Shown here in pieces: positions 259 to 25,245 of a stretch of DNA of 55,274 nucleotides. The notes beneath the pieces were generated by a model, which worked only from the letters and a program-made list of their open reading frames with translations, was not told where the DNA came from and ran no database searches. Where the stretch lies: the NCBI GenBank assembly GCA_030601755.1, contig JAUWBF010000014.1, positions 1 through 55,274 of the forward strand, given 5' to 3'. This DNA comes from Verrucomicrobiota bacterium. GTDB lineage: Bacteria; Verrucomicrobiota; Verrucomicrobiia; Opitutales; Opitutaceae. The translations under genes were made by a program, and so were the position numbers. Position 1 is the stretch's first letter. The number at the start of each line of letters is the position of its first letter.

Positions 259-345
259 AAAAAAGCCCCAAAAACTTTTGCAAGTCTTTGGGGCAAAAAT
301 GGCTGCCCGGGTTGGGATCGAACCAACGACCAAGTGATTAACAGT
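259..345. repeat. Left attachment repeat (att copy, truncated tRNA-Asn)
   Basis: These 87 bases are identical to 27497-27583. They comprise the hairpin terminator GCCCCAAA...TTTGGGGC and the tRNA-Asn 3' half from CCA up to the anticodon loop. After position 345 the sequence diverges from the tRNA, so this copy cannot encode a tRNA. The surrounding 117-421 stretch holds no convincing gene; an ORF that runs through it reads across the repeat and is spurious. Confidence 0.93.
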
Positions 346-421: not shown

Positions 422-1819
422 ATGGAAACGGAAGTTGAAGACAAAAGCGGGCAGGTTGAAAAAACTGAGGACATAAAAAACGGGACAGTAACGGGACAGA
501 GGAAACCTACTGTCCCGTTTTCACGGGCGGCAAAAACGCATCAGGACTACTGGAAAGAGCGGGTTGTCCGGCGCCCCTACGTTGATGCGGACGGCAAGCG
601 TTGTGTGCCGCCGGAGTTCTCGGTGCGGATGCGGTATCTTGGCCGTGACGTGTGGTTCAACTTGGAAACCGCCAACGCGGCGGCCGCGGCGGTGAAGGCG
701 CGGGACATTCATTTGTCATTGGTCGCCGCCGGCTGGGAGCCGACTCTGGAAAGATTCAAGCCGAGGCCGGAGGCCAAGGCGGAGGTTTGCACGGTCGGTG
801 AGTTTCTGGCCGACATTGGGCGGCGGGCCCACCTCAAGTCGATGACCCTGCGCCGCTACGCGGTAAAGCTGCGCAAGATGGTCGCGGACGTGGCCAAGCT
901 CGAGGATGGTCTGAAAAAGAAGGCCCGCCGCGCGAAATACGATTACGTCAACGGTGGCCGGGCGGCCTGGCTGGCAAAGGTGGACGGCCAGCCCCTGTCG
1001 ATACTGACCCCGGAGGCGGTGACGGCCTGGCGGAACGGCTACGTCGCCAAGGCTGGTGCCGATCCGGTGGCGAGGAAGTCGGCGGAACGCTCGGCGGCAT
1101 CGTATATGCGTTGCGTGAGGGCGTTGTTCTCGCCGGACGTGCTGAGCGTTCTGCAGGTGAAGCTGCCTGCGAATCCATTTGCGGGTGTGAAGCTCAAGGA
1201 CCCCGGGCCGCAGCGGTATTACAGCGACATTTCGGCGGAGTGGTTGCTGGCTTGCGCGGAAAGCGAGCTGCGCCAAGGCGAACCGCAGGCGTTCCTCGGG
1301 CTGACGCTGGCGCTGTGGGGTGGCCTGCGGCGTAAGGAGGCGGACTTATTGACCTGGAAGCAGGTTGATTTGCGCGAGGGGAAAATCCACATCCGGCGGA
1401 CGGAGTGGTTTGAGCCCAAGACGGAGGAGAGCGTGCGCGTGGTCGATCTGGCGCCGGCGGCGGTGGAAGTTCTCAAGGGCTTCAAAAATGGGGCACGCGG
1501 GGAGTTCGTCATGACCGGCGGGGAGCCGAATCCGACGGCGTCCTACGATTACTATCGATGCGACTGCACCTGGCGAAAGCTGGTGGCGTGGCTCAAGAAA
1601 AAGGGCGTAAAGCAGGCAAAGGCGGTGCACGGGCTGCGGAAAGAGTCCGGGTCGCTGATCGCGTCGGACTACGGCATCGAGGCCGCGCGGCACCACCTTG
1701 GCCACCGGGATATTCGCACCACGTCGGCGCACTACGTCGCCAAGCGAAAGCGGGTCGAGGTTGGCCTGGCGCTCAGAGACGGAGAGCTAAAGGCGCTGAA
1801 AGGAGGAGCGGGACGATGA
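422..1819 (+). CDS. int: Tyrosine site-specific integrase
   Basis: A 465-residue tyrosine recombinase, the likely enzyme for integration and excision at tRNA-Asn. The C-terminal catalytic domain shows the first Arg in GGLRRKEADLL (about residue 302), the HxxR box in HGLRKES (about 403-406), the second His in HHLGHRDIRTT, and the Tyr nucleophile in SAHYVAKRK (about 438). The N-terminal 200 residues, rich in Lys/Arg, would bind arm and core sites. ATG 422 is the first in-frame start. The 26-bp arm-like repeat lies inside codons 18-26, so the enzyme's own gene may carry its binding sites. The next gene overlaps its stop as ATGA. Confidence 0.93.
   Translation: METEVEDKSGQVEKTEDIKNGTVTGQRKPTVPFSRAAKTHQDYWKERVVRRPYVDADGKRCVPPEFSVRMRYLGRDVWFNLETANAAAAAVKARDIHLSLVAAGWEPTLERFKPRPEAKAEVCTVGEFLADIGRRAHLKSMTLRRYAVKLRKMVADVAKLEDGLKKKARRAKYDYVNGGRAAWLAKVDGQPLSILTPEAVTAWRNGYVAKAGADPVARKSAERSAASYMRCVRALFSPDVLSVLQVKLPANPFAGVKLKDPGPQRYYSDISAEWLLACAESELRQGEPQAFLGLTLALWGGLRRKEADLLTWKQVDLREGKIHIRRTEWFEPKTEESVRVVDLAPAAVEVLKGFKNGARGEFVMTGGEPNPTASYDYYRCDCTWRKLVAWLKKKGVKQAKAVHGLRKESGSLIASDYGIEAARHHLGHRDIRTTSAHYVAKRKRVEVGLALRDGELKALKGGAGR
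474..518. repeat. Arm-type repeat cluster, left end
   Basis: The 26 bases at 474-499 (T, six A, then two tandem ACGGGACAG units) recur exactly at 27452-27477 near the right attachment repeat. Downstream, TACTGTCCCGT (508-518) is a perfect 11-bp inverted copy of ACGGGACAGTA (480-490). Three copies of a 9-bp unit within 45 bp of the integrase start resemble integrase arm or excisionase sites. Assigning them that role is inference. Confidence 0.65.
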
Positions 1820-4028: not shown

Positions 4029-4540
4029 AATCACCCCGACGCAAACGGCTTCCTGGGCAACTTGCTGCCATCAATACAAATAGGGCATACGTCTTCGCGG
4101 ACAACGCATTGAGGGCTTGGGCCTTAAAAGCCGAAGGCAAAACCACCTCTGAGATAGCCGATGCCCTTGGAGTCAGTGTGGTTTCGGCAAATAAGTATCT
4201 CAGGTGCGGCATGGAAGCCGCCCGCGACCATTACACGTCGGCGGCGATGGATCACATCCAGATCATCCTCAGCCAACTCGAAAGCATTATCAGCAAGTGG
4301 CGGAAGCTGGCTGACTGCCCCGCTGCCGAGGGCGCCGACCGTGCCGCGGCAATCGTGCTACGAGCGTTGGAGCAAAAGGCCAAACTCCTCGGCTTGGAGG
4401 GTAAGGCTGGAGGCCTCGTGATGGACGGCGGAGAGCAAGTGATGGACTTGACCGAGGCGCTCAAGTCGCAGGCTACGCGGGAGGCGTTGCGGCGGATGCT
4501 GGACGAGGCGGATCGGGCGGCGGCGACGGAGCGGATGTGA
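4025..4540 (+). CDS. Terminase-small-subunit-like HTH protein
   Basis: A 171-residue protein. The N-terminal ALRAWALKAEGKTTSEIADA-LGVS segment is a helix-turn-helix, and the later IVLRALEQKAKLLGLEGK is the characteristic C-terminal helix of many small-terminase-like phage proteins. In phages such a protein recognises packaging sites; in satellites it can redirect a helper's packaging. No large terminase gene is visible. Its last 180 bases overlap, on the opposite strand, the tail of the sigma-zeta reading frame, which marks a rearrangement junction near 4543. Confidence 0.65.
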   Translation: MKSPRRKRLPGQLAAINTNRAYVFADNALRAWALKAEGKTTSEIADALGVSVVSANKYLRCGMEAARDHYTSAAMDHIQIILSQLESIISKWRKLADCPAAEGADRAAAIVLRALEQKAKLLGLEGKAGGLVMDGGEQVMDLTEALKSQATREALRRMLDEADRAAATERM

Positions 4541-5923
4541 GTTGGTTCCGCGCTCGCGGTCGTTCTTGCGCTGCTCGTCAACGGAGTCGAGGACGGCGCG
4601 GGTGGCGCGGTCGGGGCCGGCGGGGTTGGCGAGGTTGGGATTGCCGACGGTGCGCTCGCCGTCGGCCTCGGGGTCGAGGGGTTGGGATAGGAGCGGGCGA
4701 GCTGCGCCGCCGGGGCTTACGGGACTTTGGGGAGGGGTAGGCCTTTGGCCTTGTCCGCCGCCAGTTTCGCCAGTGCCCGACGGTCCATCTCCAGCGCCGC
4801 TTCCATAGCGGGCGAGAGCTTGGGTGACTGAGGTTTCGAGTTCATGGAGTTCACGGTATTGGATACGGTTGAGGGCTTCATTCGTCAACGGGGTGCTGGT
4901 GCCTTTTTCTGCGTCGATCAGGGAAATGGCAACCTCGGGGTGCTCGGCGAGTAAGCGAGCGATGTTTTGCTGAGATTCCCAGTGAAGTTTAACCATCTGG
5001 TCCTTGGGGATGAAGCGGCCGATTTTGCTGGCGCGGTTGACCATCCACGCAACGGCGTCGCCAGCGGGTTTGAAGACGTAGCGCACTTGGACCATAGCGC
5101 CGGCCTTGATGAGTTTCTTGATGCGGTTTCGGTGGTTGAAGAACTCACCGCTGAATGTGCCGTCGATAATGTGGGTGACTGCTGGTTCTTCCACGAGTTT
5201 CTGAACCGTGGTGGATTTGCCAGAGGCGGGACCGCCCGCCATGAAGACAAACACGTCGCCGGGTTTGGCGGAGGCGATGGCGAGGTCCGTGCGCTTGCGC
5301 CAGACTTGGCCGGCGATGCGGCCTGTGCTCGGAGTGTGGTCGCGCGCGCCGTCCTTGCTGGTGGCGTAGGGCGCGTAAAGCGAGCGGGCAACATCGGTGT
5401 CGATGACCTTGCCGCCGTGGGCGAGCGGGAGCCGGTCGTAGGCGCGGAGGGTGGCAGGCCAGTCGGCGGAGGCCTGTTGCTCAAACTCGCGGTCGGCCTC
5501 GGCTATGGCCTGCGGGTCGAGCCGCGATGAAAGGAGGGGCATGGGCCCGTTTTCGCGCAGGCTGTCGAGTGTCTCGCCCTTGCGCAGGCGGGCTTTGAGG
5601 CGTGCGCGGGTCAGTCCGATGGCGGACTGGTAGAGGGACTGGGCGCGCTGGGCGGTGAATCCGTAGGCCTCGCCGATCTGGGCGAAGGTCTGGCCTCGGT
5701 CGAGGTGGCGGCGGATAATGTCGCGCGGACGGTCGGGGAGCTCCTTCATCAGCTCGCCAAACAGGCGGGCGGTATCGGCGCGGTCGGCGGCTTCGGCTGG
5801 GTTGGTTGCATCGAGGTCGGGCGTGAGGTCGAGACGGGTGTTGTCGGCGTCGGCGTTGAGCGGGGTGTCGAGGCTGCCGCCGGCGCGGCGGTAGCGCACC
5901 TGGGCCTTTTGCACGAGGTCCAC
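4358..5923 (-). CDS. Sigma-like/zeta-toxin-like P-loop kinase (first paralogue), probably truncated
   Basis: The N-terminal 110 residues resemble sigma-70 region 4: LMKELPDRPRDIIRRHLDRG then FAQIGEAYGFTAQRAQSLYQ. Residues about 160-330 form a zeta-toxin-like kinase with Walker A FMAGGPASGKST, EFFNHRNRIKK and WESQQNIARLLAE. The remainder is Gly/Pro rich. In phage polyvalent proteins zeta domains are common; free zeta toxins phosphorylate UDP-amino sugars. The reading continues upstream in frame beyond the first ATG to a TGA at 5980-5978, with sigma region-2-like sequence (RPFRPYVATAIRNHLVDLV) between. The last 60 residues are antisense to the terminase-like gene and are probably not native. 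Confidence 0.65.
   Translation of the reverse strand: MDLVQKAQVRYRRAGGSLDTPLNADADNTRLDLTPDLDATNPAEAADRADTARLFGELMKELPDRPRDIIRRHLDRGQTFAQIGEAYGFTAQRAQSLYQSAIGLTRARLKARLRKGETLDSLRENGPMPLLSSRLDPQAIAEADREFEQQASADWPATLRAYDRLPLAHGGKVIDTDVARSLYAPYATSKDGARDHTPSTGRIAGQVWRKRTDLAIASAKPGDVFVFMAGGPASGKSTTVQKLVEEPAVTHIIDGTFSGEFFNHRNRIKKLIKAGAMVQVRYVFKPAGDAVAWMVNRASKIGRFIPKDQMVKLHWESQQNIARLLAEHPEVAISLIDAEKGTSTPLTNEALNRIQYRELHELETSVTQALARYGSGAGDGPSGTGETGGGQGQRPTPPQSPVSPGGAARPLLSQPLDPEADGERTVGNPNLANPAGPDRATRAVLDSVDEQRKNDRERGTNSHPLRRRRPIRLVQHPPQRLPRSLRLERLGQVHHLLSAVHHEASSLTLQAEEFGLLLQRS
4717..4854 (-). CDS. Small ORF nested in the zeta-like gene with its own promoter-like leader
   Basis: A 45-residue reading in a different frame of the kinase gene's 3' part, beginning with GTG at 4854: start VNSMNSKPQSPKLSP, helical middle AMEAALEMDRRALAKLAADK, end KGLPLPKVP. 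I do not recognise a family. What supports it is that the six-member island leader motif (CGTTGAC ending 30 nt before the start, CGT with its T at -11) occurs here with exact spacing. Overlap with a real coding frame lowers confidence. Confidence 0.45.
   Translation of the reverse strand: MNSMNSKPQSPKLSPAMEAALEMDRRALAKLAADKAKGLPLPKVP
4860..4890 (-). promoter_or_regulatory. Island leader motif, copy 1
   Basis: CCGTTGAC followed at fixed distance by CGTATCCA and then 5 nt to the GTG at 4854. The 3' C of CGTTGAC is 30 nt and the T of CGT is 11 nt from the start codon, as in the five other copies. It lies inside the coding frame of the first zeta-like kinase. Confidence 0.45.
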
Positions 5924-6142: not shown

Positions 6143-6149
6143 ACTTCGA

Positions 6150-6482
6150 TTAACCGCGGTGATTAGTAGTAGCTCGTTCGCGGAGACCGGCGATCAGCCA
6201 GATGAGCCATACGCCTTGCGAGGGTAGGCAGGCGAGCCATGCTACGAGTGCGGGCCAGCCCCAAGCGGATTGGGCACCCGTAGCACCGAGCCACGCCCAC
6301 ACACCGGGCACGATGCTCGACACGAAGGTGGCGGCTCCGGCTCCCAGAAAACTCCACCCTCGCCCGTGAACCAGGCCGGACCAGACCGCGCTGAAGGTGA
6401 TGAGCGAAGATAACGTGAAGAGGAGAGCGGCAATGATAGCGGAACAGCCTTTGGTTTGATCTTTCATAGTGATGAGGCGCAT
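6150..6482 (-). CDS. Small integral membrane protein
   Basis: A 110-residue protein (or 105 from the second Met, MKDQTKG) with three hydrophobic segments: SAIIAALLFTLSSLITFSAVW, FLGAGAATFVSSIVPGVWAWL and PALVAWLACLPSQGVWLIWL (approximate limits). No family recognised. It lies 3 bases after the stop of the upstream gene and 7 bases before the next start, so it is co-transcribed with the TPR-like protein and the sigma-zeta gene. Small membrane partners in toxin-containing clusters can be effectors or anchors, but nothing here proves that. Confidence 0.6.
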   Translation of the reverse strand: MRLITMKDQTKGCSAIIAALLFTLSSLITFSAVWSGLVHGRGWSFLGAGAATFVSSIVPGVWAWLGATGAQSAWGWPALVAWLACLPSQGVWLIWLIAGLRERATTNHRG

Positions 6483-6485: not shown

Positions 6486-7643
6486 TTAGCCCTCGTCGGG
6501 TCCGCTCAAAAAACAGTGATTTGGGTCTGGCTCGGGTTGGTGATAGCAACACAGCGGTTTCGTCGATGTGAACTGGTTGGGTTTCGACGCGAGGCTGAGC
6601 GAGGCTCGATGGTCGCGCTCGCGCTGTTGAAAGAGCCCCGAAAGGCGAGCTCGGTTGTGGCGGACCACGTTCTCGTAATATTGCCGGTAGGCAGAGGTCA
6701 GGCGCGGGTGGCGGGCGACGGCGTTTGCATCGGTCTGATAAAGGACTTGAATGGGGTCGAAATTGAAGAGCGGGGCGAAGTGTCGCGGCATAGCGCGAAA
6801 GGTCGCGACATCGACCGTGCCCATGGCAGGGAGGGGCTCCGGGGCTCGCTCACCGTTCGGGCCAAAGAGCACCGAGAGCAGGCGGCGGGTGCTGCGCGAC
6901 TGGCTGCTAGTGGCGAGTGCCGTCCACATGGGCTCAAAGTCGGGATCGTAGAGGGCAAGCCCTGCAAATTGGCGTTCCTCGGCCTTCCAGAGGAGGACCT
7001 CAAGCGCATCGACCGGTAGGCCGAGTCGACTGAGAGCGCAGGCGAACTGGTAATGGTCGCAGAAGCAACCACCCCACGCGATCATCATAGCCGTTACTTG
7101 GGCGGCGGTGGCGTGATCTCCTTCGGCCCCGAGGATGACCGCAGCAAAATTATTCCGACGGCTTGGTGGATACTCATTGGGATTCTCGAGTCCTACCATG
7201 AGGCGACGCCATTGCTGGGCGAGGATGGAGGCGGCGTAGCGCCAGTCGCCCACCGCGCAGTGCAGCCGGGCGAGAAGGTCGGTGGTCTGCCACGCGTCTG
7301 CGGGCATCAAATCGGCGAAGTCGACGGAGAGCAGCCGGGCATGGGCCTGGGCGTAGAGGCCGAGCACAAACTCCGCGCTGGCGGCGGCCACTTCGCGTTG
7401 CGCAGGGGAGGCACCCGTGGGAGGCTGCAAAGGCCGATCGAGGCTCGGTTTCAACGGGATCAAGACGCGAGGGTCGTCGGCGTAGGGGCGGTGAAACCAA
7501 ACAGCGGCGGTGGCGGGTGATTCGCAAATGGCCGACTCGTCGGAGCGGTCCGGCGAGTCGGCGGCGGGGGCGACTTCGGGTTGCGGCGCGCCGGGTTCGG
7601 GCGCGCTGGCTGGGGCGGATGGATGAGGAGATGAAGTATTCAC
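6486..7643 (-). CDS. Hypothetical protein with helical repeat character
   Basis: A 385-residue protein starting with GTG at 7643. The first 45 residues are Pro/Ala rich and low complexity. Residues about 80-240 look like tetratricopeptide-type helix pairs (AASAEFVLGLYAQAHARLLS, AVGDWRYAASILAQQWRRL, ACALSRLGLPVDALEVLLWK). The tail is Arg rich. No family recognised. The island leader motif stands at the exact fixed distance upstream, so this is likely the first gene of a unit with the membrane protein and the sigma-zeta gene. Confidence 0.65.
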   Translation of the reverse strand: MNTSSPHPSAPASAPEPGAPQPEVAPAADSPDRSDESAICESPATAAVWFHRPYADDPRVLIPLKPSLDRPLQPPTGASPAQREVAAASAEFVLGLYAQAHARLLSVDFADLMPADAWQTTDLLARLHCAVGDWRYAASILAQQWRRLMVGLENPNEYPPSRRNNFAAVILGAEGDHATAAQVTAMMIAWGGCFCDHYQFACALSRLGLPVDALEVLLWKAEERQFAGLALYDPDFEPMWTALATSSQSRSTRRLLSVLFGPNGERAPEPLPAMGTVDVATFRAMPRHFAPLFNFDPIQVLYQTDANAVARHPRLTSAYRQYYENVVRHNRARLSGLFQQRERDHRASLSLASKPNQFTSTKPLCCYHQPEPDPNHCFLSGPDEG

Positions 7644-7706: not shown

Positions 7707-8579
7707 TCACGGCACTGCGATGAGGGCGCCGAGCGCGAAGCGGCGGCGGACCTCGCGCTCGACGGCGTAGGCTCGGTCGGCGACCGGCGATGACGCGGTG
7801 AGCAGGCGCGGTTCGGGCGGGTTTGGATCTTCCGAGTCTCTGCCTGCTTGGCCACCGGCAAGGGCGGCGGGGTCCGGCGCAGAGGCGTAGCGGATGCGCT
7901 CGGGCAAGGCGTGAGCGAGCATCTCGATGGCCCCGCCGCCGGCGTTGGACGTGTCGATGAGGCAGACCTTGACGGAGGGAAGTTCCGCGAGGAGGCGCGC
8001 GACGTTTTGCTGGGATTCCCAGTGGAGCCGCGCCATGGCATCGGGCGGGAGTTCGCGTCCGATGCGGGCGGCGCGTTTCACCATCCACGGCATGGCTTCG
8101 AAAACCGGCCGGAAGACGTAGTGGAACTCGACCTGGAGGCCGCGCTTGAGGGCTTTGAGCAGGCGATTTCGGTGGTGGTAAAACTCTCCGCCGAAAATGC
8201 CGTCCACCACCACGGCGACCTCGGGATCGCGGGCGTGGAGTTGGGCGCGGGTGCTCTTGCCGGAGGCCGGGCCGCCGGCGAACCAGACAAACCGCTGCCC
8301 GGGGCGGGCAGCATCCATCGCCGCATCGAGTCTTTTACGATAGACTGCGGCGGCGACCCGCCCGGTGACCGGGCTAAGCCGGCGCGCGCCTTCCGGGGAT
8401 GCGGCGTAAGGCGGATAGAGGGAGCGGGCGATGTCGATCTCGATGACCTTGCCCCCGTGCGCAAGCGGGAGCCGGTCGTAGGCGGCGAGCGTGGCGGGCC
8501 AGTCGGCCTCGACCTGACGGCGAAAGGCGGCTTCGTGGGGATCGGGCAGGCGCGGAGAATCGGACTGGGCTTCGCTCAT
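7707..8579 (-). CDS. Zeta-toxin-like P-loop kinase (second paralogue)
   Basis: A 290-residue protein clearly paralogous to the kinase part of the 4358-5923 gene: both have DWPATL-AYDRLPLAHGGKVI, a RSLY-PYA segment, Walker A AGGPASGKST (about residues 103-112), EF-HHRNR and HWESQQN-ARLLAE. Zeta-family kinases phosphorylate UDP-N-acetyl sugars, and zeta domains also occur in phage and conjugative polyvalent proteins. The ATG overlaps the stop of the alarmone hydrolase gene (ATGA), so synthesis is coupled. No classical epsilon antitoxin is visible beside it. Confidence 0.75.
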   Translation of the reverse strand: MSEAQSDSPRLPDPHEAAFRRQVEADWPATLAAYDRLPLAHGGKVIEIDIARSLYPPYAASPEGARRLSPVTGRVAAAVYRKRLDAAMDAARPGQRFVWFAGGPASGKSTRAQLHARDPEVAVVVDGIFGGEFYHHRNRLLKALKRGLQVEFHYVFRPVFEAMPWMVKRAARIGRELPPDAMARLHWESQQNVARLLAELPSVKVCLIDTSNAGGGAIEMLAHALPERIRYASAPDPAALAGGQAGRDSEDPNPPEPRLLTASSPVADRAYAVEREVRRRFALGALIAVP

Positions 8580-9118
8580 GTGCGATCCACTTTACGGCGG
8601 GCGCGGGCCTTGGTCTCGGCGACGAGTTTGGCCAGGGCGGCGCGGCCGGCTGCGATGGGCGGTTCATCCCCATAAGCCAGGACGGCAATGGCCTTCTCAG
8701 CCTTGGCGAGAGCGGTGGTGGGAATCTTGGCGTAAGCGCTGTCGAGCAGGTTGTCGTAGCCGTCGGCCATCTTGGCGACGCGGACGCGCCAGTCGGCGGC
8801 GGCGAGGGTGGCGTAGTAGGCCTCCTCACGGTCGTCGTGCGGCAGGCGGCTGTCCTTGGTCAGCGCGGCGACGAGGTTGGCGGCGTCGGAGCCAAAGGCC
8901 TTGGCGATGTCGTCGTAGTCGGTCGTGGTGTCTTCGATGGTGTCGTGAAGCAGGGCGGCGATGAGGGCGGCCTCGTCTTCGACGCCCCAACTGGCGGCCA
9001 GGGCGGCGACGCGCATGGGGTGGGCGTGGTAGGGCGTCTCATCGTCTTTGCGCATCTGGCCCAGGTGGGCGCTGGCGGAAAACGAAATGGCTTCGAGGAT
9101 TTTGTGGGTGATTTTCAT
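8576..9118 (-). CDS. HD-domain small alarmone hydrolase (RelA/SpoT-type)
   Basis: A 180-residue protein with the layout of stand-alone (p)ppGpp hydrolases (MESH1-like). HAHPMRVA lies near residue 31, the HD motif in ALLHDTIEDT at residues 58-59, and VRVAKMADGYDNL near 120-130 corresponds to the family's 'VKLADRxxN' box. No synthetase domain is present. Such enzymes cleave the 3' diphosphate from alarmones and serve as antitoxins to toxic small alarmone synthetases, but here the coupled gene is a zeta-type kinase (ATGA overlap). ATG 9118 is the natural start; longer readings lack the conserved N-terminus. Confidence 0.8.
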   Translation of the reverse strand: MKITHKILEAISFSASAHLGQMRKDDETPYHAHPMRVAALAASWGVEDEAALIAALLHDTIEDTTTDYDDIAKAFGSDAANLVAALTKDSRLPHDDREEAYYATLAAADWRVRVAKMADGYDNLLDSAYAKIPTTALAKAEKAIAVLAYGDEPPIAAGRAALAKLVAETKARARRKVDRT

Positions 9119-9132: not shown

Positions 9133-9870
9133 TCAGTTGAAAGCGAGGGGGAGGCTGAGTTGCCCGGCGGCAGACGGTGTGGCGTAGCGTGAAACTGAAT
9201 TGGCCAGATCGCCGAGGGTAAGGAGCGCACTGGTGGGTTTGGGCGCGGCAAGGATCGGCAGGGCGATTTCCCGAAACGTGTTGGCGGTGGCTGTGCGGCG
9301 GTGGGGCTCGCAGTGCCGAACGATGGCGGAGAGGGCGGCGTTGAGGGTGAGAAACTCCTCCTCCAGCCACGGCACCCGGCAACGGCAGGCGCAAAGGCGG
9401 GGACGACCGTGGGCGCGATAGGAAACACGAAGGGGATCGAGCAGGACGATTTCCATCCAGAGCGCGTCCATCTGCCGGTAGGTCAGACCCCGCAGGGAAA
9501 GGCCGGTGCGAACGGCCCGCGAGTAGGCCCGCAGGGCGGGATCGACCGACGCGGTGCCGGCCGGGCGGTGTGCGTTGCGCAGCGTGTAGAGCGTTTCGCC
9601 GACGGCGCAGAGTTCCAATGACTCGCGGCGCAGATAGGCGGGGCGGGCGACGGGGGCGAGTTGGTCGCTCTCGACGATGACGGTGAGGGCGGCGTTCCGG
9701 CCGAGCGCGGCGAGGGGAAAATCGGCGGGGAGCACGAGGCGACCGTTCTCAAGTTTGGCCGAAAAGTGCAAAAGCGATGGGGGATCGATCGGGCGGGAGC
9801 CGGGCAGTGGATCACCAAGGGGCACAGCGGGCGCGGGCGGGTTGGCAAAGGCGGGAGAGGAAGCGTTCAC
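9133..9870 (-). CDS. Hypothetical protein with Cys-rich segment
   Basis: A 245-residue protein starting with GTG at 9870. The first 30 residues are Pro rich. The middle has LPADFPLAALGRNAALTVIV, and PRLCACRCRVPWLEEEF holds three closely spaced Cys that could bind metal. No family recognised. It is followed after 14 bases by the alarmone hydrolase gene, so it is probably the first gene of the 9870-to-7707 transcription unit. The island leader motif at fixed distance supports this start. Confidence 0.6.
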   Translation of the reverse strand: MNASSPAFANPPAPAVPLGDPLPGSRPIDPPSLLHFSAKLENGRLVLPADFPLAALGRNAALTVIVESDQLAPVARPAYLRRESLELCAVGETLYTLRNAHRPAGTASVDPALRAYSRAVRTGLSLRGLTYRQMDALWMEIVLLDPLRVSYRAHGRPRLCACRCRVPWLEEEFLTLNAALSAIVRHCEPHRRTATANTFREIALPILAAPKPTSALLTLGDLANSVSRYATPSAAGQLSLPLAFN

Positions 9871-9875: not shown

Positions 9876-9906
9876 GGAAGACGAATCGGGCGGGCGAGAG
9901 TCAACG
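9876..9906 (-). promoter_or_regulatory. Island leader motif, copy 3
   Basis: CCGTTGAC ends 30 nt upstream of the GTG at 9870. CGTCTTCC has its T 11 nt upstream and leaves 5 nt to the start. There is no Shine-Dalgarno-like purine run in front of the GTG, consistent with a leaderless message. Confidence 0.55.
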
Positions 9907-10281
9907 GGGGGGATTGGCGATTATTTCCGGGGCCATCTGGCGGGCGAAGTCCCACGCGGAGAAAATCGGACGCTGGTCCGGACCGCACGGGACGGCGATC
10001 CAAGGGTCTTCACCGAAATCGACGTAAGCCTCGTAGAGTTGGTCGGCGGTCATGCCGGGCTTGTAGGCCTCGTGCAGGCTGCGGATGACGACGCGGGCGC
10101 ACGCGGCAACGGCTTCGTCGAGCGTGGGGTAAACGCCGAGGGTGTAGCGTTCGTCGGAGTCGCCATGGTGGAAGTTGTCGTCCACCTTGACGACGTAGCC
10201 TCCGGGTGGAGTTGCCGGGGGCGGTGAGGCGGGACCATCCACAGGCTGGGAGGTGGCGGGAGGATTGAGCGGATGTTCCAT
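9901..10281 (-). CDS. Hypothetical protein, acidic
   Basis: A 126-residue protein when started at ATG 10281 (MEHPLNPPATSQ). A longer version from 10308 adds nine residues but loses the leader-motif spacing that the 10281 start satisfies exactly. The C-terminal domain contains VKVDDNFHHGDSDERYTLG, ARVVIRSLHEAYKPGMTADQ and a DFGEDPWIAVP stretch, which looks like a small alpha/beta fold found in many phage and plasmid hypothetical proteins. Function unknown. Confidence 0.6.
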   Translation of the reverse strand: MEHPLNPPATSQPVDGPASPPPATPPGGYVVKVDDNFHHGDSDERYTLGVYPTLDEAVAACARVVIRSLHEAYKPGMTADQLYEAYVDFGEDPWIAVPCGPDQRPIFSAWDFARQMAPEIIANPPR

Positions 10282-10286
10282 ACGAG

Positions 10287-10317
10287 GGGATACGGTCGCG
10301 CCCTCCATTCATCAACG
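10287..10317 (-). promoter_or_regulatory. Island leader motif, copy 4
   Basis: CCGTTGAT ends 30 nt upstream of the ATG at 10281. CGTATCCC has its T 11 nt upstream, then 5 nt. This copy decides the start codon of the following gene. Confidence 0.5.
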
Positions 10318-10343: not shown

Positions 10344-10811
10344 TCAGGCCAACGCGTCGCCCTGCCGGGCAGGCGTGAGGTTTAACTCGCTGGTCTGCTC
10401 ACGGGACGGCGATGCTCTGGCAGCCTCACTTTTACGAGTAGCGCGGAGCGTGACTTCGAGAGCGCGCAGTCGGCGACGCTCCACGGGCAGAATTTCCGCC
10501 AACAGTTCTCCCAGTCCCTCCGCCGTAAGCCCGGCCCTCCGCATGATCTCATCGGCCGAAACGCCGACCGCGACCAAGTAGGCGACCCGCTTGCTGAGCA
10601 AAATCCGAGCATCGCCATCCAAAACACAACTCACAATCGCGGAGCCGCTCAGCCTGAGAACCGCGACGCCCATAATTACATCTTCGGGCGTGACGCCGTT
10701 TTCTCGAATCGCGGTTTCGAGTAGGTGCAGCCGTTCCATCGGGTCCATCTCACGGTAGGCCGTGGTCGGCTCGCTTACTTGCTCGTCGCAACCTTGTGGA
10801 GGTTTAGTCAC
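10344..10811 (-). CDS. Hypothetical protein divergent from the XRE regulator
   Basis: A 155-residue protein starting with GTG at 10811. It is mostly helical (MERLHLLETAIRENGVTPED, LVAVGVSADEIMRRAGL, LGELLAEILPVERRRLR) with a disordered Ser/Arg-rich tail. No family recognised. A TTGACA at 10848-10843 on this strand and TAAAAA at 10824-10819 form a good promoter with the start only a few bases after the -10. The first operator palindrome lies between these boxes, so the divergent XRE protein probably represses it. Confidence 0.6.
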   Translation of the reverse strand: MTKPPQGCDEQVSEPTTAYREMDPMERLHLLETAIRENGVTPEDVIMGVAVLRLSGSAIVSCVLDGDARILLSKRVAYLVAVGVSADEIMRRAGLTAEGLGELLAEILPVERRRLRALEVTLRATRKSEAARASPSREQTSELNLTPARQGDALA

Positions 10812-10858: not shown

Positions 10859-10875
10859 ACGGCATAATGGGGCGT
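10859..10875. promoter_or_regulatory. Operator-like palindrome 2 over the XRE start
   Basis: ACGGCA-TAATG-GGGCGT, the same 17-bp layout as the first palindrome with one perfect and one degenerate half-site. The centre is 35 bp from the first one. It covers a CATAAT -10 box (10863-10868) and the GTG start of the XRE gene, which suggests autorepression. Confidence 0.6.
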
Positions 10876-11098
10876 GTCACATTCGCCCGCTATTGCCCGC
10901 CAGCTCAAAGCCTTCGGGGCGAACTTGCGTCGTGAGCGGACCGCACGGGACGTGACCCAGGAAAAGCTCGCGGAGCTGGCCGATCTCAACATCCGCACGC
11001 TCCAGAAGATCGAGGCCGGGCAGACCAACATCCTCCTCACCACGGCCATACGGCTGCAACGCGCGGTAGGGTGCGAGTGGCACGCGTTGGTTCCGTGA
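10874..11098 (+). CDS. XRE-family transcriptional regulator
   Basis: A 74-residue single-domain helix-turn-helix protein. FGANLRRERTARDVTQEKLA, then ELADLNIRTLQKIEAGQTNI and LLTTAIRLQRAVG, is a complete Cro/C1-type five-helix fold with no effector domain. The GTG start lies 5 nt after a CATAAT box and lacks a ribosome binding site, so the message is probably leaderless. Two 17-bp palindromes in its promoter are likely its operators. It sits at the border between the defence operon and the accessory cluster, but controls at least itself and the divergent gene. Confidence 0.8.
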   Translation: MSHSPAIARQLKAFGANLRRERTARDVTQEKLAELADLNIRTLQKIEAGQTNILLTTAIRLQRAVGCEWHALVP

Positions 11099-11117: not shown

Positions 11118-13952
11118 CTACTCCCAAGTTTTGGTTTTGAAGTTCAGGCTTCCCGCATTCTCCGACACGGCGCGCTTGATCTGATCGGATGCACCGCCCG
11201 GATACTCGGCGTTGATTTCGACCGTGACTTTCAGTGTGGCGTTCGGATCGGACGCGAGCACCGCGATGATCTCCTCGGCGATCTGCACCATGCGCATTTT
11301 GGCGGTCGAGGCGTTGACCTCGGCCGAACCGTAAAAGGATTTGGCCTTGGGCTGGGGCGTCGCACCGGCACCGGAGGTCGCCGGTGCGGTGCCTCCCGTT
11401 GGCAGGGCCAGGGGCGTGCCAGGCGTTGCCGCCGTGGTCGCCGAGGGTGCGGGGGCCACCGTCGCCGAGGCTGCGGCTTTCGCGGCGAGGGCAGCCTCGT
11501 GGGCCTTGGCGACCTCGGGCTCAATTAAGAGAAGGGTGTCGTCGAGCTGGACGTTGGCGTCGCCAAATTTGAAGCCCTCGAAGCCGTCAGCGGTCTGGCC
11601 GTAGGCGGTGGCGAAGAAATCTTTCGACGCCGCGCCTTTGACGATGGCTTGGGCGAGCACCTCGCGGTTTTTCAGGCGCGGCAAGTAGAGGTAACGCTGG
11701 GTGTCTTCCCAGAAGACCATGGCACCGACCGCCGGCTTTTCCGGCTTCCAATACAGCTCGCGCAGTTTGTTGCGAAGGTGAACCGGTGACCAAGTCGTGA
11801 TGATGAGTTCGTTCTCACTCGCGACGCGTTCGATCTCGGAGCCATAGGCGTTGCCGGCCGGATTGAGCGGAAAGGCCTCGACCGTGATTTGTTTGTCGGT
11901 CGGCTGGGACATGACCGGGCAAAGAAGCCACTTGTAGCACTCGCGGGCGACGCGAGGCAGCACCTCCTCGGCGGTCACCTGCTCCTTCTTGGCCTGCTGT
12001 TCTTGCAGGCGGTCGATGTTGAGGCGGCCGTCCTTCACATCGTCCGTGATTGAGGCCCATGCGAGTGCGGTGCGGATGCTGTCGCGCAGCCGGGCTAGCG
12101 AGCCTTGATCCGGCGCGACGAAAATGAGCCGGTTGCCACGGTAGCGGGGCTTAGTCCCGTTGTTGCGGATAAACTCGGTGACCTCATCGGCAGCGAGTCG
12201 TGGTTCACTCTTCAGGTAATACTTTTCGGGTGGGAGGAAACAGAGACGGAGCGCGCCGTCGTCGGGCACGTCGGCGTGCGGGGTGAAGACGTGGACGCCG
12301 TCGAAACCACCACCGGCACCGGCGAGCTTGCGCAGGACTTCGGCGAGTTTGCCGCGCACTTCGTTTTGCTCGTTGAAGCGCGATTTCCGGTCCTCCATCT
12401 CGCGCCGGAGGTTGGCGCGGGTATCGAACCAGAAGCGGGTCGCATCCTGGGCTTTGTCACCGGATGAGTTGAGGTAGTGGAGGCGGTCGGCGAGACGACC
12501 AAGCGCGTCCACGTAGGTTGAGGCGGTTTGCCCCGGCTGGAAGCAACCCAAGAGCACGCGCGCACGGTCAAGGCCACGGATGCCCGGCTTGGCTCCGGCA
12601 GCGGCCGGAGCACTGCCTAGGAATAGGGTGCGGGCAACACGTCGGGCGGCGTTGAGGGAACCGAAACGGGGTTCTTTGTTTTCGAGTTCGGTGGTCTCGG
12701 CGCGGTCGCCGTCGATGTCCTTGTCGAGCACGGCGTCCCATCCGGCGGCGAGGTAATAAGTGAGTTCGTTGCGGGTGCTGCCGTCGTAAAGCGGCAGGCT
12801 GCCGGGCAGGATCATCAGGTCGGCGTTGTTGTCCTTCCACAGCCGGTAGATGACCTTGGCCATGAGCTTGAGCACGCCACGGGTGCGCTGAAAGCCCTGG
12901 ATGGTCGTCCAGTCCTCGTAGAGACGGTCGAAGAGTTCGGGGTGGATCGGGTAGGCTTGCACGAGACGGTCGTAGTAGCGGGCCTCCTGGGTTTCGCCGG
13001 GCAGCTTGGCGCCCTCGGCGATGTAGGCTTGGGCGAAGGCGCGGCACACGGCCTCGCGCGTGGCAACATCGGAGACGGGCTCGAAGAGACGGCGGCGCAC
13101 GATCTCGAAGGCCTCCTCGGTGGCGACCGGCTTCCAGAGCGCCTGCACGCGGCCAAAGGTCTTTTCCAACGCGGCGAGCGCGGCCTGGCCCTTGGAGCTG
13201 CCAGCCTCGACCTCGGACTCGGGCAGCGAGGCGAGCAGGAGCGCGTTGGGCACCAACTTCGCGGCCTCGGTGAGGGCTTGGACAAACGACAAGTTGCTGT
13301 CGTAGGTGCCGCCACTGAGGGCCTGACTGTCGGGGAATTGGCGAATGTAGGCCACCAACTCGTCGATGAGCACCACGCAAGGCGCATGACGCTCCAGCAG
13401 AGTCTTGAGCACGTCTTTGCCGGGTGAGGTGCCGTTGGCGTCGGCATCCTTCACCAAGGCGAAGCCGGTTTCCCCGCCGAGCTGCCACGCAAGTTCACCC
13501 CAGAGCGTGTTGATCGTCTGGCTGCCCTGCTTCCACGGCTGACCGGGGGCGAGGTTGGTGCCGTCGAGGACGGCGATGCGCGACTTGGGCACATCCATGA
13601 GTCCGGCCTGATCGAGCAGCGCCGGAACACCGACGAGGTCCTTGATCGGGCACGACCGGGTGGCGAGGTGGTAAACCGCCAGCATGGTGTGCGTCTTGCC
13701 ACCGCCGAAAGCGGTCTGAAGCTGGATGACCGGATCGCCACCCTGCCCGTTGAGCCGCTTGGCGACGGAAGTGAGGAGCAAGCGCATGCCCTCCGTGATG
13801 AAGGTGCGCTGGAAGAAGGACGCAGCGTCCTGATACTCCTTGGTCGCCTTGCCCGTGCGGACGGCGGTGATGTCGGCCGCAAACTCGGATTGCTGGAACG
13901 TGCCTTCGAGCACGTCGGGATGGGGATGGGCTACTTCGCGCCAAGATTTCAT
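11118..13952 (-). CDS. DUF499-family ATPase (PglY/BrxC-like; Hma-type ATPase)
   Basis: A 944-residue P-loop ATPase. The N-terminus ([20 protein letters not shown]) and the GGGKTH Walker A at residues 83-88 ([10 protein letters not shown]) are typical of DUF499; Walker B is [11 protein letters not shown] near residue 195. A Pro/Ala-rich linker at about residues 810-870 precedes a last domain ending [18 protein letters not shown]499 ATPases occur in BREX (PglY/BrxC-like) and in helicase-methylase-ATPase clusters. It is the last gene of the seven-gene defence operon, 13 bp after the AlbA_2 gene, and also has a promoter-like sequence of its own. Confidence 0.9.
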
Positions 13953-13958
13953 GGTAAA

Positions 13959-15548: not shown

Positions 15549-16763
15549 CTAGGGGGTCGCTACCGTCTGCGTCGAGGTTTCGGCGGTTGGGCCGACACTT
15601 CGAAGCACCTCCACCAGCTGATCCACGATGGTCATGGCGTCCTCGATAAACTGACCGTATTGGATCGCGACGAAGGGCCCGCCCGCCGCCCAATTTTGAT
15701 ACGCTTCCCAGTAAATCCACGCCGGCCACGTCGTGCTTTGCTTGGGGCTGTGAAACCGCTTGGCGAACTCATCGCGCAACCGGTCGCGGATCTCCACCGG
15801 GAGTTTGCCGCCGTCGGCAAAACCAAAGGCGAAGTCTTGGTAATTGCCTTTGTCGAACTCGAACCGGATTTGCACCGGGAGCGCGCCGGGCTGGGTGGGT
15901 TGAAATTCAAAGCCCGCGCCTTTCCAGCCATAGTCGTTGTTGGTCGTGCCCTTGAACTTGAGATTCCGCTTCGTGGCCTCTTCTTCCAGACGTGCTTGCA
16001 GGCGACCGATGAGGGTCCGGCGCAGTTCACTCTCGGTCTGCCGGAGTGCGAAGAAGGCTTCGAGTGCTTCACGGCTATCGGTCGCGGCTTTGATGAGATC
16101 GGCGTTCATGGGCGTTTGGGGACTTTGCTGGGTTAGCTCCTGCAACAGGTGCAGGTATTGGCTGAGCGATTCTCGCACCGTCGGGGCCGACACGGCTTCT
16201 TTGCGGCACTGCTTGATCCATTCGATGACGTGCACCGCGTAGGACCGGCACAGCAGATTGGATGGTCGCTCCCCCTCCGTCAGGTTTTCGGGGCTGCGCC
16301 CATCTAGGGTCAGGTAAATCAGCGAAGCCCCCGGGGCGTAGTTGAGATAACGGGTCACCCAGCGATTCTGCTCCCCGGCGTAGATTTTGTTTTCGATCAA
16401 CAGCGCTGGTTGGACGCCGCAGTTCACCACGAGATCCAATCTGCCTCCGCTATCCTCGGTCACGGTGCCGATACCGACCTCGGCCGACACCTTCACCTTG
16501 CCTGGTGGCAACGGCGGCAGCCCCATCACCGATACGAAGCGCTGCAAAAACACATCGCCCTGACCGTGGCTGCCCTCGGGGTCGAGTAGGTCGCGGAGCA
16601 AGCTGGAGTGGGTGGAGACTTCCAGATGCCCAACGCCGAGGAGGTGAAACAGATTAAACCGCTCTCCCTGTGCGCCCCGCTTTAGCGGCTCGTAGATTCG
16701 GCCGATGCGCTGCGCGGCGGTGAGCAGGGCGCGAACATGCACCACGGTGTCCGCTTGGGTCAT
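15549..16763 (-). CDS. PD-(D/E)XK nuclease superfamily protein (PDDEXK_4-like)
   Basis: A 404-residue predicted nuclease. The start ATG 16763 overlaps the methylase stop (ATGA). Residues 49-75 (E49, [20 protein letters not shown]) match the family's 'E..hS.flawLLdP.gsHgqgd' signature. The catalytic core is RLDLVV (D110) and LLIENKI (E124, K126). The C-terminal half ([31 protein letters not shown]) resembles the DUF-type sensor domain common in these proteins. In this operon it probably supplies DNA cleavage, or is an additional effector nested between methylase and ATPase. Confidence 0.85.
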
Positions 16764-19651
16764 TGAAACAACTCCCCTTGGCCTTCGGGGACGGCGCCGG
16801 CGGCGGCCTCGATGGCGGTCCAGGAGGTGATTAGTTCGTTGTAGGCGCGGGCGTCTTCGGCCCAGCCTTGGCGTTCGCACAACGTGTAGAGGCGGTAGGA
16901 GAGCTGGCGCACGGCTTCGCTCTGCGCCTTCACTCCACCGAGGAGTTTGCCCGCCGCCGTTTCGCCGTCCTGCTTGAGGGCGCGGATGAGGTGGTGGAGC
17001 GTTTCCCAGACGGGGTTGCGAGTATCTTTGCGCGGGTCCCAATCGGCGGGGTAGTCAGCCCATTTGAGCAGGCTGACTTTGCCGCCGCCGCTGGCGACGA
17101 CGCCGGCCTCGGCGAGGCCGCCGACGCTGATGGATTTGGAGCGGGCGAGCACATCGGCTTCTCCGTAAAGGCCTTCGTGCCATTCGTGCTGCTCGAACCA
17201 CGCGAGGCACCACTGGGTGTCGGCATCGAAATCGTCCTCGGCGAGGAAGCGGTTGATGAGCTGCAAGGCGGTGCGGACGCTCATGGGCGTGCCGTCGGCC
17301 TCCAGCACGGCGGCGTATTTGGAGAAGACCGCCATGCCGGGGCCAATGATGGCTTGGGACAAGTCCACCGGCGCGACGGGCGAGCGGCCGTCGGCCGAGC
17401 CCTTGGTCATTTCGTCGAGCGCCTCGGGCAGGACGGCGTTTAGTTCGCGGATGAACTCGCGGCGAGAAACGGTCGGCGCGTCAGCGGGGCGTTTGCGGCA
17501 GACGAGGACAACACTGGAGGCGAGAGCGTTGGTGCCATTTCCGATAACGCGGCCTTCCTTTTCCGTGCGTATCGGCCATGTGCCGGTCAAAGCAAAGCCG
17601 GACGCATTAACCGCACTGAGAAATGTTTCCCAGCCCGTCGAGGAAGTCGCATTTTCACCATCCAGCTCACTCTGCTTGAACGCGTAGTAGATGGCGACAG
17701 GCGCTCCGGGATGCGAAAGATCGGCTAACCGCCGCATCGCATCAGTCATCCCATTCAAAAAGAACCGCTCGGCCTTCTCCTTGCTGCCATGTCGGTAAGG
17801 AGTCGCGACCAGCTCTTCCATCTTTGGAACGCTCATGGTTGAGAGAAGGCTCGGGAAGAACTCCCGCAGTGCCCGGCGAAGCCACAAATAGAAGAAGTCG
17901 GAGAGATCAGCGTATCCGATGTTGTCGTAATACGGCGGATCGGTGGAGATTAGCTTATTGGCTGAGATGGTCTGAGATTGCGCATCGGCTTGCGCGACTA
18001 CGCCGGGAAAATTGCCGTAGCCCAGAGCCTCGAAGCCCTTAATCTGACGCTCAAACAGGTTATTGTAGCTACCGGACGAATCGCTGAAGACGTTTGCCTC
18101 GGCATAGTCCCAAGTCATCGGAAGTGCCTGCCGCGCGAAAACGGAACGCATCTGAGTGTTGGGATGGTTCCATCCGCAGATCGTGGCGGAGTGATTCGCT
18201 ACCTGGCACACTAAGAACGCCAGATACACGCTGACGGCTTCGGCGTAGGCTTGGGGGCCGATGCCGCCGACTTCGAAGCCGCGGGAGTCATCAGATAAGC
18301 CGGCGGCAAGGGCGTCTTGGCGGATGCGCTCCCGCGCCTCGCCCACCAAATCGCTGAACGTCGTTAGCGCCACCAGTTGCCGCGGCGTGAAAAGGTCGCC
18401 GTAGGTGGTGAGGCCGTAGTTGAGTGTCCAAAAATTGCGCGGGTCGTCGGGCAGCGAGAGTTCCGGTTTCCACGTCGGCTGTGCCTTGGCGGCGACCGCC
18501 TCCATCACGTCGGACGGCGAAAGATACACGCGACCGCGTGTGCCCTCGGCGACCACGGCCATGAGCCGTGCGCCGATGCGCTTGGCGATGCCCTCGGCTT
18601 TGATGTAAGCGGGCTCGATGGCTGCGTCTGAGAGCACGCAACGGAAATTGGCCCCGCGAGCGAGCTTGGTGCCGGCCTTGGCCTCCGGCGGCGGCGTGCC
18701 GACCTTGACGGTGAAGCGGTAGCGGTCGCCCTCGACGACGGGCTGCACGTAGCTCTCTTTGCCCGCCTTGCTCGACAGGATGAAGGTCGAGGCGAGTGGC
18801 ACGTCCACGTGGGAAAAGGCCGGGTTGGGGCTTTTGACGGTGCGCGCCCAGAGCCAGGCGATGACGGTGAGTTTTTGGCCGACGAGGGGTTTGAGGTCGG
18901 GTCGTTCGCGGGCCATCTCGGCGGTGATCTCGACCGGCGGGTAGAGGTGGCCGATGCGTTTCTCCGCCTCGGCGCGCATCCACGCGCCGTAGTGGCGAAC
19001 GTCCTCGGCGAGGCCGGTGGCGCCGGGGTAAGAACCGGAGCCGCCGCCGATCTTGGCGCGGGTGGCGGGGTTGACCGGAGGCCGCCCGGCGAACTTGGGC
19101 GGGATCTCGATCATGGCCTTGTTGATGAGCACCGGCACGGGGTTGAGGTCGGAGGCGTAGGCCTCCAGCCCGAGCCGCTGCGCCTCCAGCGGGATAGCGC
19201 CACCGCCGGCGAAGGGATCGTGCAGGGCGGGGAGTTTTTCCGGGTTAAAAAGTTCGGCGGCCTGCGGGTGGTCCTTGTTGAGTTCGCAGACCTCGCGCCA
19301 CGAGCGGCGAATCTCGGCGCGGGCGCGCTCCAGCACGGCCTCGTTGGTGGTGTTTTCCCACTGCACGAGGTCTTCGATGATTTTGAACAGCTCCTGCCGT
19401 TTTTTCGCGGCCTCCTGCTTGTTGACGCCGTATTTAAAGCCCTGCCCCTGCTGGTAGCCGGGGTCGTTGACGAGCTGGGCGAAGATGACGGCGCGGGCGG
19501 CGGCGAGCGGTCGCCGCGCCCACCAAAGATGAAGCGTGGACGGATGCCCGTGGCGGATGGATTTCTCCCGTGCGGAAGCGACGTTGATCGCATCGAGCGG
19601 CAACGCGACCTCGATGAGTTTGCGGGGGGATTTGATGGGATGGGCGGACAT
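16760..19651 (-). CDS. DUF1156 adenine-specific DNA methylase (Hma/BREX-3-type)
   Basis: A 963-residue predicted N6-adenine methyltransferase. DUF1156 forms the N-terminus ([40 protein letters not shown]). The SAM-binding motif is [18 protein letters not shown] (about residues 143-160). The catalytic motif IV is [20 protein letters not shown] near residue 571, in the circularly permuted order expected for the group. It should modify host DNA as self. It abuts the HNH nuclease gene upstream with no gap (TAA then ATG) and overlaps the PD-(D/E)XK gene downstream. Confidence 0.92.
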
Positions 19652-20248: not shown

Positions 20249-20251
20249 GGC

Positions 20252-24600: not shown

Positions 24601-25245
24601 TTCCTCGTCACGGGCGATCTGGTCAAGACGGACGACGAGCTGAGCGTGTTCCTCGAAGGGATTGCCGCTGGGGGATGCCGCGTCGAGATCGGACGAATAG
24701 ACACGAAATTCGAGGCCGAACTTCTCGTAGAGTTCATCGCGCCACTGTTCGACCAGACTGCCGGGCGAAATGATCAGGATGCGCCGCGCGTCGGCCCGCA
24801 TGATGAGTTCGCGGATGTAGAGGCCCGCCATGATCGTCTTGCCCGCGCCGGGGTCGTCGGCGAGGACGAAGCGGAGCGGCTGACGCGGGAGCATAGATTC
24901 ATAAACCGCCGTGATCTGGTGCGGGAGCGGGTCCACGTTGGACGTGTGGACCGCCATCATCGGGTCGAAGAGGAACGCGAGGTCGATACGTTTGGCCTCG
25001 GCGGTGAGCTTGAAGGCCTCGCCGTCACCCTCGAAGGACCACGGACGTTCCACGGTGGCGACTGACAGCGTGCCGATGTCGGCGGCGGTGACGAGACGCT
25101 CGCGGATGGTGCCGGAGGGGAGCTTGTAGATGACCTGAACCGCGCCTTCGCCGATGGGGACGGCGGCCATGACGGACACGATCACGCTGGGTTCTAAACC
25201 AACGAGTGAAAGGCCGGGTTTTAGGTCGGAGAGCAGCATGGACAC
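21673..25245 (-). CDS. SNF2-family helicase with DUF3883 C-terminus (Hma/DrmD-like)
   Basis: A 1190-residue (GTG 25245) or 1188-residue (ATG 25239) superfamily 2 ATPase. Motif I is [13 protein letters not shown] (about 130-141), motif II is [10 protein letters not shown] (about 240), motif III is [12 protein letters not shown], and motif VI is [15 protein letters not shown]. Residues about 440-480 are a charged insertion. The end carries DUF3883 ([20 protein letters not shown]), a domain resembling PD-(D/E)XK nucleases with an E-x-K pair. It is the first gene of the defence operon and probably the DNA-tracking motor of the system. Confidence 0.92.

What the first reader, a model, noticed from the sequence alone, without database searches (positions are those of the whole stretch)
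7707..9118. Small alarmone hydrolase translationally coupled to a zeta-type kinase
An HD-type (p)ppGpp hydrolase overlaps the kinase start by ATGA. Known small hydrolases neutralise toxic alarmone synthetases; here the partner is a P-loop kinase instead. The pair could form a new kind of nucleotide-signal module, in which the hydrolase removes a modified nucleotide or alarmone linked to the kinase's action.
Basis: partly seen in the sequence, partly recalled or inferred. Interest (0 to 1): 0.65.

Follow-up and report, generated by a model that had tools for sequence, protein, structure and literature searches.

The report
Nucleotide hydrolase beside zeta-type kinase
Two real, overlapping genes, one for a small nucleotide-cutting enzyme and one for a kinase related to a known bacterial cell-wall toxin, ride on a mobile defence island; both enzyme types are known and no closely matching pair turned up in the sequences searched, so a dedicated signalling pair remains an untested idea.

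Summary
In detail: an HD_4 small alarmone hydrolase (8576-9118, minus) overlaps a kinase gene (7707-8579, minus) by ATGA. The hydrolase is MESH1-like with its catalytic residues intact. The kinase misses Pfam's Zeta_toxin cut-off; a family profile and an AF2 model both place it with the block-swapped gonococcal zeta_1 kinase (PDB profile E 7e-15; Foldseek E 2e-8; Z 16.7), with the catalytic Lys, Asp and two Arg conserved. Both genes lie in a run of seven same-strand ORFs on a 27.2-kb tRNA-Asn integrative element that also carries Hma defence genes. Recurrence does not support a module: no pair in 21 loci of kinase relatives, 30 of 58 Pfam zeta places, or 4 hydrolase loci of the order; 1 of 80 viral hydrolase loci has a zeta-like kinase next door, of the other topology. 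Most likely: two known nucleotide-modifying enzymes carried as co-expressed cargo. An enzymatic toxin-eraser pair stays possible (0.15). Side finding: the same kinase domain sits inside methionine synthase MetH in seven genomes.

The parts
8576..9118 (-). HD_4 small alarmone hydrolase (MESH1-like), 180 aa
   Evidence: HD_4 57 bits; R23, K24, H33, H58, D59, E62, D63, K116, D119, N123 invariant among 7 aligned sequences
7707..8579 (-). stand-alone zeta_1-type (block-swapped) P-loop kinase, 290 aa
8576..8579 (-). ATGA overlap of hydrolase stop and kinase start
4358..5923 (-). paralogous kinase domain (about 4838-5485, 55% identical) behind a sigma-70 region 4; an in-frame TGA precedes the ORF
9133..9870 (-). 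ORFan, 245 aa, 14 bases upstream of the hydrolase
   Evidence: only this genome of 132
6486..7643 (-). ORFan, 385 aa, 63 bases downstream of the kinase
   Evidence: only this genome of 132
6150..6482 (-). ORF of 110 aa, same strand, hydrophobic by eye
   Evidence: no family search made
9901..10308 (-). ORF without family match, 135 aa, same strand
10344..10811 (-). ORF without family match, 155 aa, same strand
10874..11098 (+). HTH_3 regulator, divergent to the run
422..1819 (+). tyrosine recombinase (Phage_integrase)
259..345 (.). 87-base direct repeat, distal end of the element (copy of tRNA-Asn 3' part)
27497..27583 (.). 87-base direct repeat at the tRNA-Asn end of the element
27538..27612 (-). 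tRNA-Asn (gtt), inferred integration target
21673..25245 (-). HmaA helicase
16760..19651 (-). HmaB methylase
11118..13952 (-). HmaC ATPase (DUF499)
20252..21682 (-). PtuA-like ATPase

Best explanation
A tRNA-Asn integrative element with defence genes holds a short same-strand cargo run in which a MESH1-type nucleotide hydrolase and a zeta_1-type kinase are probably made together. Shown: positions and overlap; family of each by sequence and, for the kinase, by predicted fold; conserved catalytic residues; the element's repeats and recombinase; no recognisable alarmone synthetase in the genome; near-absence of the pair in the sequences searched. Inferred: the kinase uses Asp49 to activate a hydroxyl of a UDP-sugar or similar nucleotide and Lys108, Arg169 and Arg175 to place phosphate on it, draining cell-wall precursors as gonococcal zeta_1 does; the hydrolase removes phosphate or pyrophosphate from nucleotides ((p)ppGpp, (p)ppApp, NADPH), perhaps alarmones made by invaders or cofactors, since the host shows no maker of the usual alarmones. 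Most likely the two act independently and are neighbours because accessory genes are packed tightly there.
For: Kinase: a profile of 11 relatives hits gonococcal zeta_1 colinearly (17-188 to 46-215, E 7e-15); all six Foldseek matches with E up to 0.001 are zeta_1 chains; VIA Z 16.7, rmsd 5.0, 218 aligned, next zeta 9.2; catalytic residues conserved. Hydrolase. Element. No synthetase. Pair not found again. Two neighbouring ORFs found only in this genome of 132.
Against: The hydrolase sits, with overlapping stop/start, where an antidote gene often lies, and the listed ORFs of 25 aa or more show no other candidate in the gaps beside the kinase, only nested frames. In viral contig L069 a hydrolase is again directly followed by a zeta-like kinase. 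The genome samples (273 order, 387 phylum and 286 class genomes, overlapping) are small for a rare mobile pair, and 30 of 58 zeta places were looked at.
Confidence: 0.6

Rival explanations
1. Enzymatic toxin and eraser: the kinase phosphorylates a sugar-nucleotide or dinucleotide and the hydrolase removes that phosphate, so the pair is a toxin-antidote or writer-eraser module.
For: Overlap with the hydrolase first; catalytic residues intact in both; no RelA_SpoT synthetase to give the hydrolase its usual substrate; zeta-fold kinases phosphorylate UDP-sugars (PMC5923241 sections) and NAD at 3' (PMC5087710 abstract and discussion), and an orphan small alarmone hydrolase acts on several alarmones and NADPH (PMC9765508 abstract); one further adjacency in a viral contig (L069).
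Against: Pair absent from 21 loci of kinase relatives, 30 zeta loci and 4 order hydrolase loci; relatives of the L069 kinase occur in 206 phage records and the four regions opened show no hydrolase relative within 2.5 kb. I know of no report that MESH1-type enzymes act on phosphorylated sugar hydroxyls (recall; not searched).
Confidence: 0.15
2. Steric antitoxin: the hydrolase protein binds and blocks the kinase, in place of the small zeta_1 antitoxin, with its enzyme activity beside the point.
For: Gene order and overlap; no other small ORF in the gaps beside the kinase.
Against: The hydrolase keeps its catalytic residues, which a pure binder would not need; the known antitoxin is an extended peptide (PMC5923241 section 8).
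Confidence: 0.08
3. The kinase is no toxin but a domain recruited for another role, as in the large proteins and MetH where its relatives sit; the hydrolase is a phage-type accessory gene.
For: 15 of the 21 places of relatives lie in reading frames of more than 1000 aa: 7 in MetH, 8 in other large proteins; the window paralogue follows a sigma-70 region 4.
Against: The window kinase stands alone and keeps Asp49, Lys108, Arg169 and Arg175, whereas three of four MetH copies aligned have Asn for the Asp.
Confidence: 0.17

Closest known systems
ng_zeta1 of the gonococcal epsilon_1/zeta_1 toxin-antitoxin system (6EPG/6EPH/6EPI; PMC5923241)
   Same: Same swapped order of blocks (catalytic Asp block before the P-loop), same fold (Z 16.7), same catalytic Lys, Asp and two Arg
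   Different: 13-17% identical in the structural alignments; 290 aa against a 401-residue chain; no Asn where zeta_1 has Asn75, which contacts the muramyl group; the overlapping upstream gene encodes an HD hydrolase, not the extended antitoxin peptide
Small alarmone hydrolases / MESH1
   Same: HD_4 domain, catalytic set, single-domain length
   Different: 30-36% identical to the six relatives aligned; no RelA_SpoT synthetase in the genome; neighbour is a kinase
Zeta-like kinases of polyvalent proteins (PMC5512222, passages)
   Same: Zeta-like kinase on mobile DNA; that paper names conjugative elements of Verrucomicrobium and Proteobacteria and MuF fusions
   Different: The window kinase is a separate gene with no other family match
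toxSAS modules with small alarmone hydrolase antitoxins (PMC9765508 abstract)
   Same: Small hydrolase beside a partner gene
   Different: Partner is a kinase, not a RelA_SpoT synthetase
AvrRxo1 (3'-NAD kinase; PMC5087710)
   Same: Zeta-like kinase fold
   Different: Z 6.5 only, a level the tool calls common; different context

Membership tests
zeta_1-type (block-swapped) zeta kinases | Catalytic-Asp block lies before the P-loop in the chain | tested here: met
   Colinear profile match 17-188 to 46-215 of 6EPH; nine canonical-order zeta-like sequences align only from the P-loop on, with about 47 of their columns unmatched behind it
zeta_1-type (block-swapped) zeta kinases | Equivalents of Lys115, Asp56, Arg175, Arg181 | tested here: met
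   K108, D49, R169, R175, read from the alignment and A3 columns; roles from PMC5923241 sections 6 and 9
zeta_1-type (block-swapped) zeta kinases | Kinase-domain fold | tested here: met
   AF2 model of residues 1-235, pLDDT 72.8, pTM 0.71, 3 sequences; Foldseek E 2.1e-8; VIA Z 16.7, rmsd 5.0, 218 aligned
zeta_1-type (block-swapped) zeta kinases | C4'-OH phosphorylation of UDP-sugars | not testable with these tools
   Lys59 equivalent is Arg52; no Asn at the Asn75 position in a gap-prone stretch
epsilon_1/zeta_1 toxin-antitoxin operon | Small antitoxin gene in a bicistronic operon with the kinase | tested here: not met
   The overlapping upstream gene is an HD_4 hydrolase; ORFs of 25 aa or more beside the kinase are only nested frames
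Canonical Zeta_toxin (PF06414) | Score over Pfam cut-off of 22.3 bits | tested here: not met
   Full kinase not listed, C-terminal fragment 14.5 bits; the paralogue passes with 35.6 bits
Small alarmone hydrolase (HD_4 / MESH1) | HD_4 domain over cut-off | tested here: met
   57 against 27.2 bits
Small alarmone hydrolase (HD_4 / MESH1) | Conserved R-K, H, HD, ED, D..N residues (set recalled) | tested here: met
   Invariant in A2, 7 sequences
Small alarmone hydrolase (HD_4 / MESH1) | Hydrolysis of (p)ppGpp or NADPH | not testable with these tools
   No assay
toxSAS-hydrolase toxin-antitoxin | Adjacent RelA_SpoT synthetase | tested here: not met
   No PF04607 match in the held genome, 96.14% complete
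Polyvalent protein | Kinase domain within a large multidomain protein | tested here: not met
   290-aa stand-alone gene, no second family match

The most novel reading that the evidence does not exclude
The pair is an enzymatic writer-eraser: a zeta_1-type kinase puts a phosphate on a nucleotide or dinucleotide (a UDP-sugar, or NAD at 3' as AvrRxo1 does) and a MESH1-type hydrolase, in a host without a (p)ppGpp synthetase, takes it off, giving a toxin whose antidote works on the product rather than on the toxin.
Probability: 0.12. Interest if true: 0.75.

Novelty: new member of a known kind. Interest (0 to 1): 0.35.

Why it matters
That last point bears on what orphan MESH1-type enzymes in bacteria act on. 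If the eraser reading were true, it would give these hydrolases a partner and substrate outside alarmones. The same kinase domain inside methionine synthase is, to my eye, the stranger lead.

Tried and rejected
Canonical zeta toxin: rejected for the window kinase, which misses the Pfam cut-off and fits the zeta_1 layout. I first took the swapped block order as new; it is in print (PMC5923241 sections 6, 8, 11 part 1). A direct profile test of the N-terminal block against canonical zeta failed (hhalign E 0.29, reversed control 0.65), though the same block of relative L040 matches Zeta_toxin 35-92 at E 8.7e-4; the window kinase's and paralogue's own N-terminal blocks matched nothing.

Single-sequence AF2 of the kinase was poor (pLDDT 54.8) and not used for fold search. 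A hydrolase scan with one sequence found none in viral contigs; the profile did.

How the counts were made. The 21 kinase-relative loci are 1 place, 11, 1 and 8 new; flanks scanned ran from 1.5 to about 13 kb where contigs allowed. Of 15 places outside this genome, one (G050, L176) was dropped because the printed sequence reads as an FtsY/SRP-type GTPase, my judgement. Of the 30 zeta loci fetched (of 58 places), 8 match only the first half to two thirds of the profile and may be other P-loop proteins. MetH status was shown by Pfam for four genomes and read by eye from flanking sequence for three (L166, L168, L173).

Paper searches (held open-licence library only): 'small alarmone hydrolase' with 'zeta toxin' 0 papers; 'methionine synthase' with 'zeta toxin' 0; 'polyvalent proteins' with 'zeta toxin' and 'bacteriophage' 0, although PMC5512222 does treat a 'zeta-toxin-like kinase', so wording matters; 'zeta toxin' with 'circular permutation' 2, judged by listing not relevant, judged by its listing of 8 of 18, showed no HD antidote to zeta.

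Full report
What is there. On the minus strand an HD-domain gene (8576-9118, 180 aa) is followed by a P-loop kinase gene (7707-8579, 290 aa); the stop of the first and the start of the second share ATGA. The HD protein matches HD_4 at 57 bits (cut-off 27.2) and the phage phosphohydrolase family PHROG 990 (E 2.9e-30). Its best solved relatives are CG11900, HDDC3 and MESH1 (the first two are fly and human MESH1 by recall), with RelA/SpoT enzymes and small alarmone hydrolases further down. Aligned with six relatives, R23, K24, H33, H58, D59, E62, D63, K116, D119 and N123 are invariant; they fit the catalytic set of RelA/SpoT HD domains as I recall it.

The kinase. The protein as a whole is not recognised by Pfam's Zeta_toxin model, but a 55%-identical domain 2.2 kb further on (ORF 4358-5923, behind a sigma-70 region 4) is. 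A profile of these two and a relative in genome G187 found matches in 11 of 387 phylum genomes, this one included; the broadened family of 11 sequences (A3) in 15 of 286 class genomes, this one included and one judged false. Against the PDB, A3's best match is the gonococcal zeta_1 kinase (E 7e-15), colinear over 172 profile positions; streptococcal zeta structures are not among the 60 rows shown of 126. An AF2 model of residues 1-235 from three sequences (window kinase, paralogue, viral locus L160; pLDDT 72.8, pTM 0.71) gives zeta_1 chains as all six Foldseek matches with E up to 0.001, and in the second look Z 16.7 for zeta_1, 9.2 for PezT, 8.8 and 8.2 for streptococcal zeta and 6.5 for AvrRxo1 (the tool warns that Z under 8 may mean little). 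Rocker and colleagues describe zeta_1 as a subclass in which two sequence blocks changed places, so that the P-loop comes later (PMC5923241, sections 6, 8, 9 and part 1 of 11 read). The window kinase has that layout: Asp49 (their Asp56) before Lys108 (Lys115), then Arg169 and Arg175 (Arg175 and Arg181). Arg52 stands at their Lys59 and no Asn at their Asn75, so preference for UDP-MurNAc cannot be assumed. At 290 aa against 401 it has no room for their C-terminal OB domain, which that paper found in one non-gonococcal homologue only.

The surroundings. An 87-base direct repeat (259-345 and 27497-27583) contains the 3' part of tRNA-Asn (27538-27612, minus), and a tyrosine recombinase gene lies just inside the left copy (422-1819). 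I read this as a 27.2-kb integrative element. It carries strong matches to HmaA, HmaB and HmaC (the full Hma set by recall), a PtuA-like ATPase, a PD-(D/E)XK protein and a Schlafen/AlbA protein. The hydrolase and kinase lie in a run of seven same-strand ORFs from 10811 down to 6150. Two neighbours, 245 and 385 aa, are found only in this genome among 132 of the order.

The missing synthetase. The held genome is 96.14% complete. RelA_SpoT (PF04607) has no match in it, and matches in 2 of 61 genomes of its family sample. HD_4 has one match, the protein studied here. The usual reading of a small hydrolase on mobile DNA, as antidote to a toxic synthetase next door, therefore does not apply; the unseen 4% leaves a little room. 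An orphan small alarmone hydrolase with activity on several alarmones and NADPH is described (PMC9765508, abstract only).

Does the pair recur? Kinase side: in 21 loci of relatives outside this genome I found no hydrolase relative in the flanks held. In 30 loci fetched of 58 Pfam zeta places from 177 order genomes there is none either; 8 of these 30 match only part of the profile. Hydrolase side: 4 loci in 273 order genomes outside this one have no such kinase. L097's kinase lies about 3 kb away on the other strand, and L122's looks like another nucleotide kinase by eye. L069's kinase has the canonical, not the swapped, order. Its relatives occur in 206 phage records, and the four regions opened show no hydrolase relative. 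So adjacency is rare. This is against a dedicated module, but a rare pair could be missed by these samples.

How it most likely works. The kinase probably phosphorylates a UDP-sugar or another nucleotide and so hampers growth of the host or an incoming element; Iyer and colleagues suggested cell-wall weakening for zeta-like kinases of conjugative elements, naming Verrucomicrobium (PMC5512222, passages only). The hydrolase probably cleaves phosphate or pyrophosphate from nucleotides made during infection, or from cofactors. I give independent action 0.6, an eraser pair 0.15, a steric antitoxin 0.08 and a non-toxic kinase role 0.17. It has no direct evidence here.

Where the kinase family lives. 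Of the 21 places, 15 lie in reading frames of more than 1000 aa. Eight are large proteins, of which L040, L035 and L037 carry other recognised domains (MuF and ART-PolyVal in L040, LPD38 in L035, InPase, RadC and methyltransferase domains in L037), L034 and L160 showed only the kinase, and the others were not scanned. Seven are, unexpectedly, cobalamin-dependent methionine synthase, with the kinase between the cap and B12-binding domains: shown by Pfam in four genomes (in L036 neither the homocysteine domain nor Zeta_toxin was listed) and read by eye in three. In three of the four aligned copies the catalytic Asp is Asn; in the fourth, L036, the P-loop is degenerate though its Lys remains. In G467 the frame loses the kinase half. 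Five relatives are small stand-alone genes (G187, G630, G480, G736, G750), none with a hydrolase relative in the flanks scanned.

Verdict. A true observation of two known enzyme kinds in an unusual neighbourhood, of modest interest; the module idea stays a testable minority reading.

Noticed in passing
L031, L032, L033, L036 (Pfam); L166, L168, L173 (by eye): A zeta_1-type kinase domain is inserted inside methionine synthase MetH, between the B12 cap domain and the B12-binding domain, in seven genomes of the same class; in each of the four aligned copies the catalytic Asp or the P-loop is altered, and in G467 the kinase half is missing.
   Followed up: partly
L069 588-2051: Viral contig with an HD hydrolase followed 27 bases later by a canonical-order zeta-like kinase; relatives of the kinase occur in 206 phage records, mostly annotated as hypothetical in the 40 rows shown.
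   Followed up: partly
L159 2501-3845 (Citrobacter phage Miller): The phage zeta-domain kinase is followed by a gene annotated as a HAD-like 5'-3' deoxyribonucleotidase, another kinase next to a nucleotide phosphatase.
   Followed up: no
window 4358-6162: The paralogous kinase follows a sigma-70 region 4; an in-frame TGA separates it from a short upstream stretch of the same frame, so the gene may be decayed or start late.
   Followed up: partly
window 474-499 and 27452-27477: A second direct repeat, 26 bases, near both ends of the element; perhaps integrase arm sites.
   Followed up: no
window 11118-25245: HmaA, HmaB and HmaC matches with PtuA-like, PD-(D/E)XK and Schlafen/AlbA genes among them.
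   Followed up: no
L038 1334-2437 and L039 4022-5124: Two stand-alone relatives of the kinase are each followed by a second, 152-aa P-loop protein that looks like another small kinase.
   Followed up: no
L015 7751-8317 and 10434-11000: Two nearly identical MESH1-like genes, each beside a copy of what reads as an efflux-pump gene, in genome G126: apparently a recent tandem duplication.
   Followed up: no
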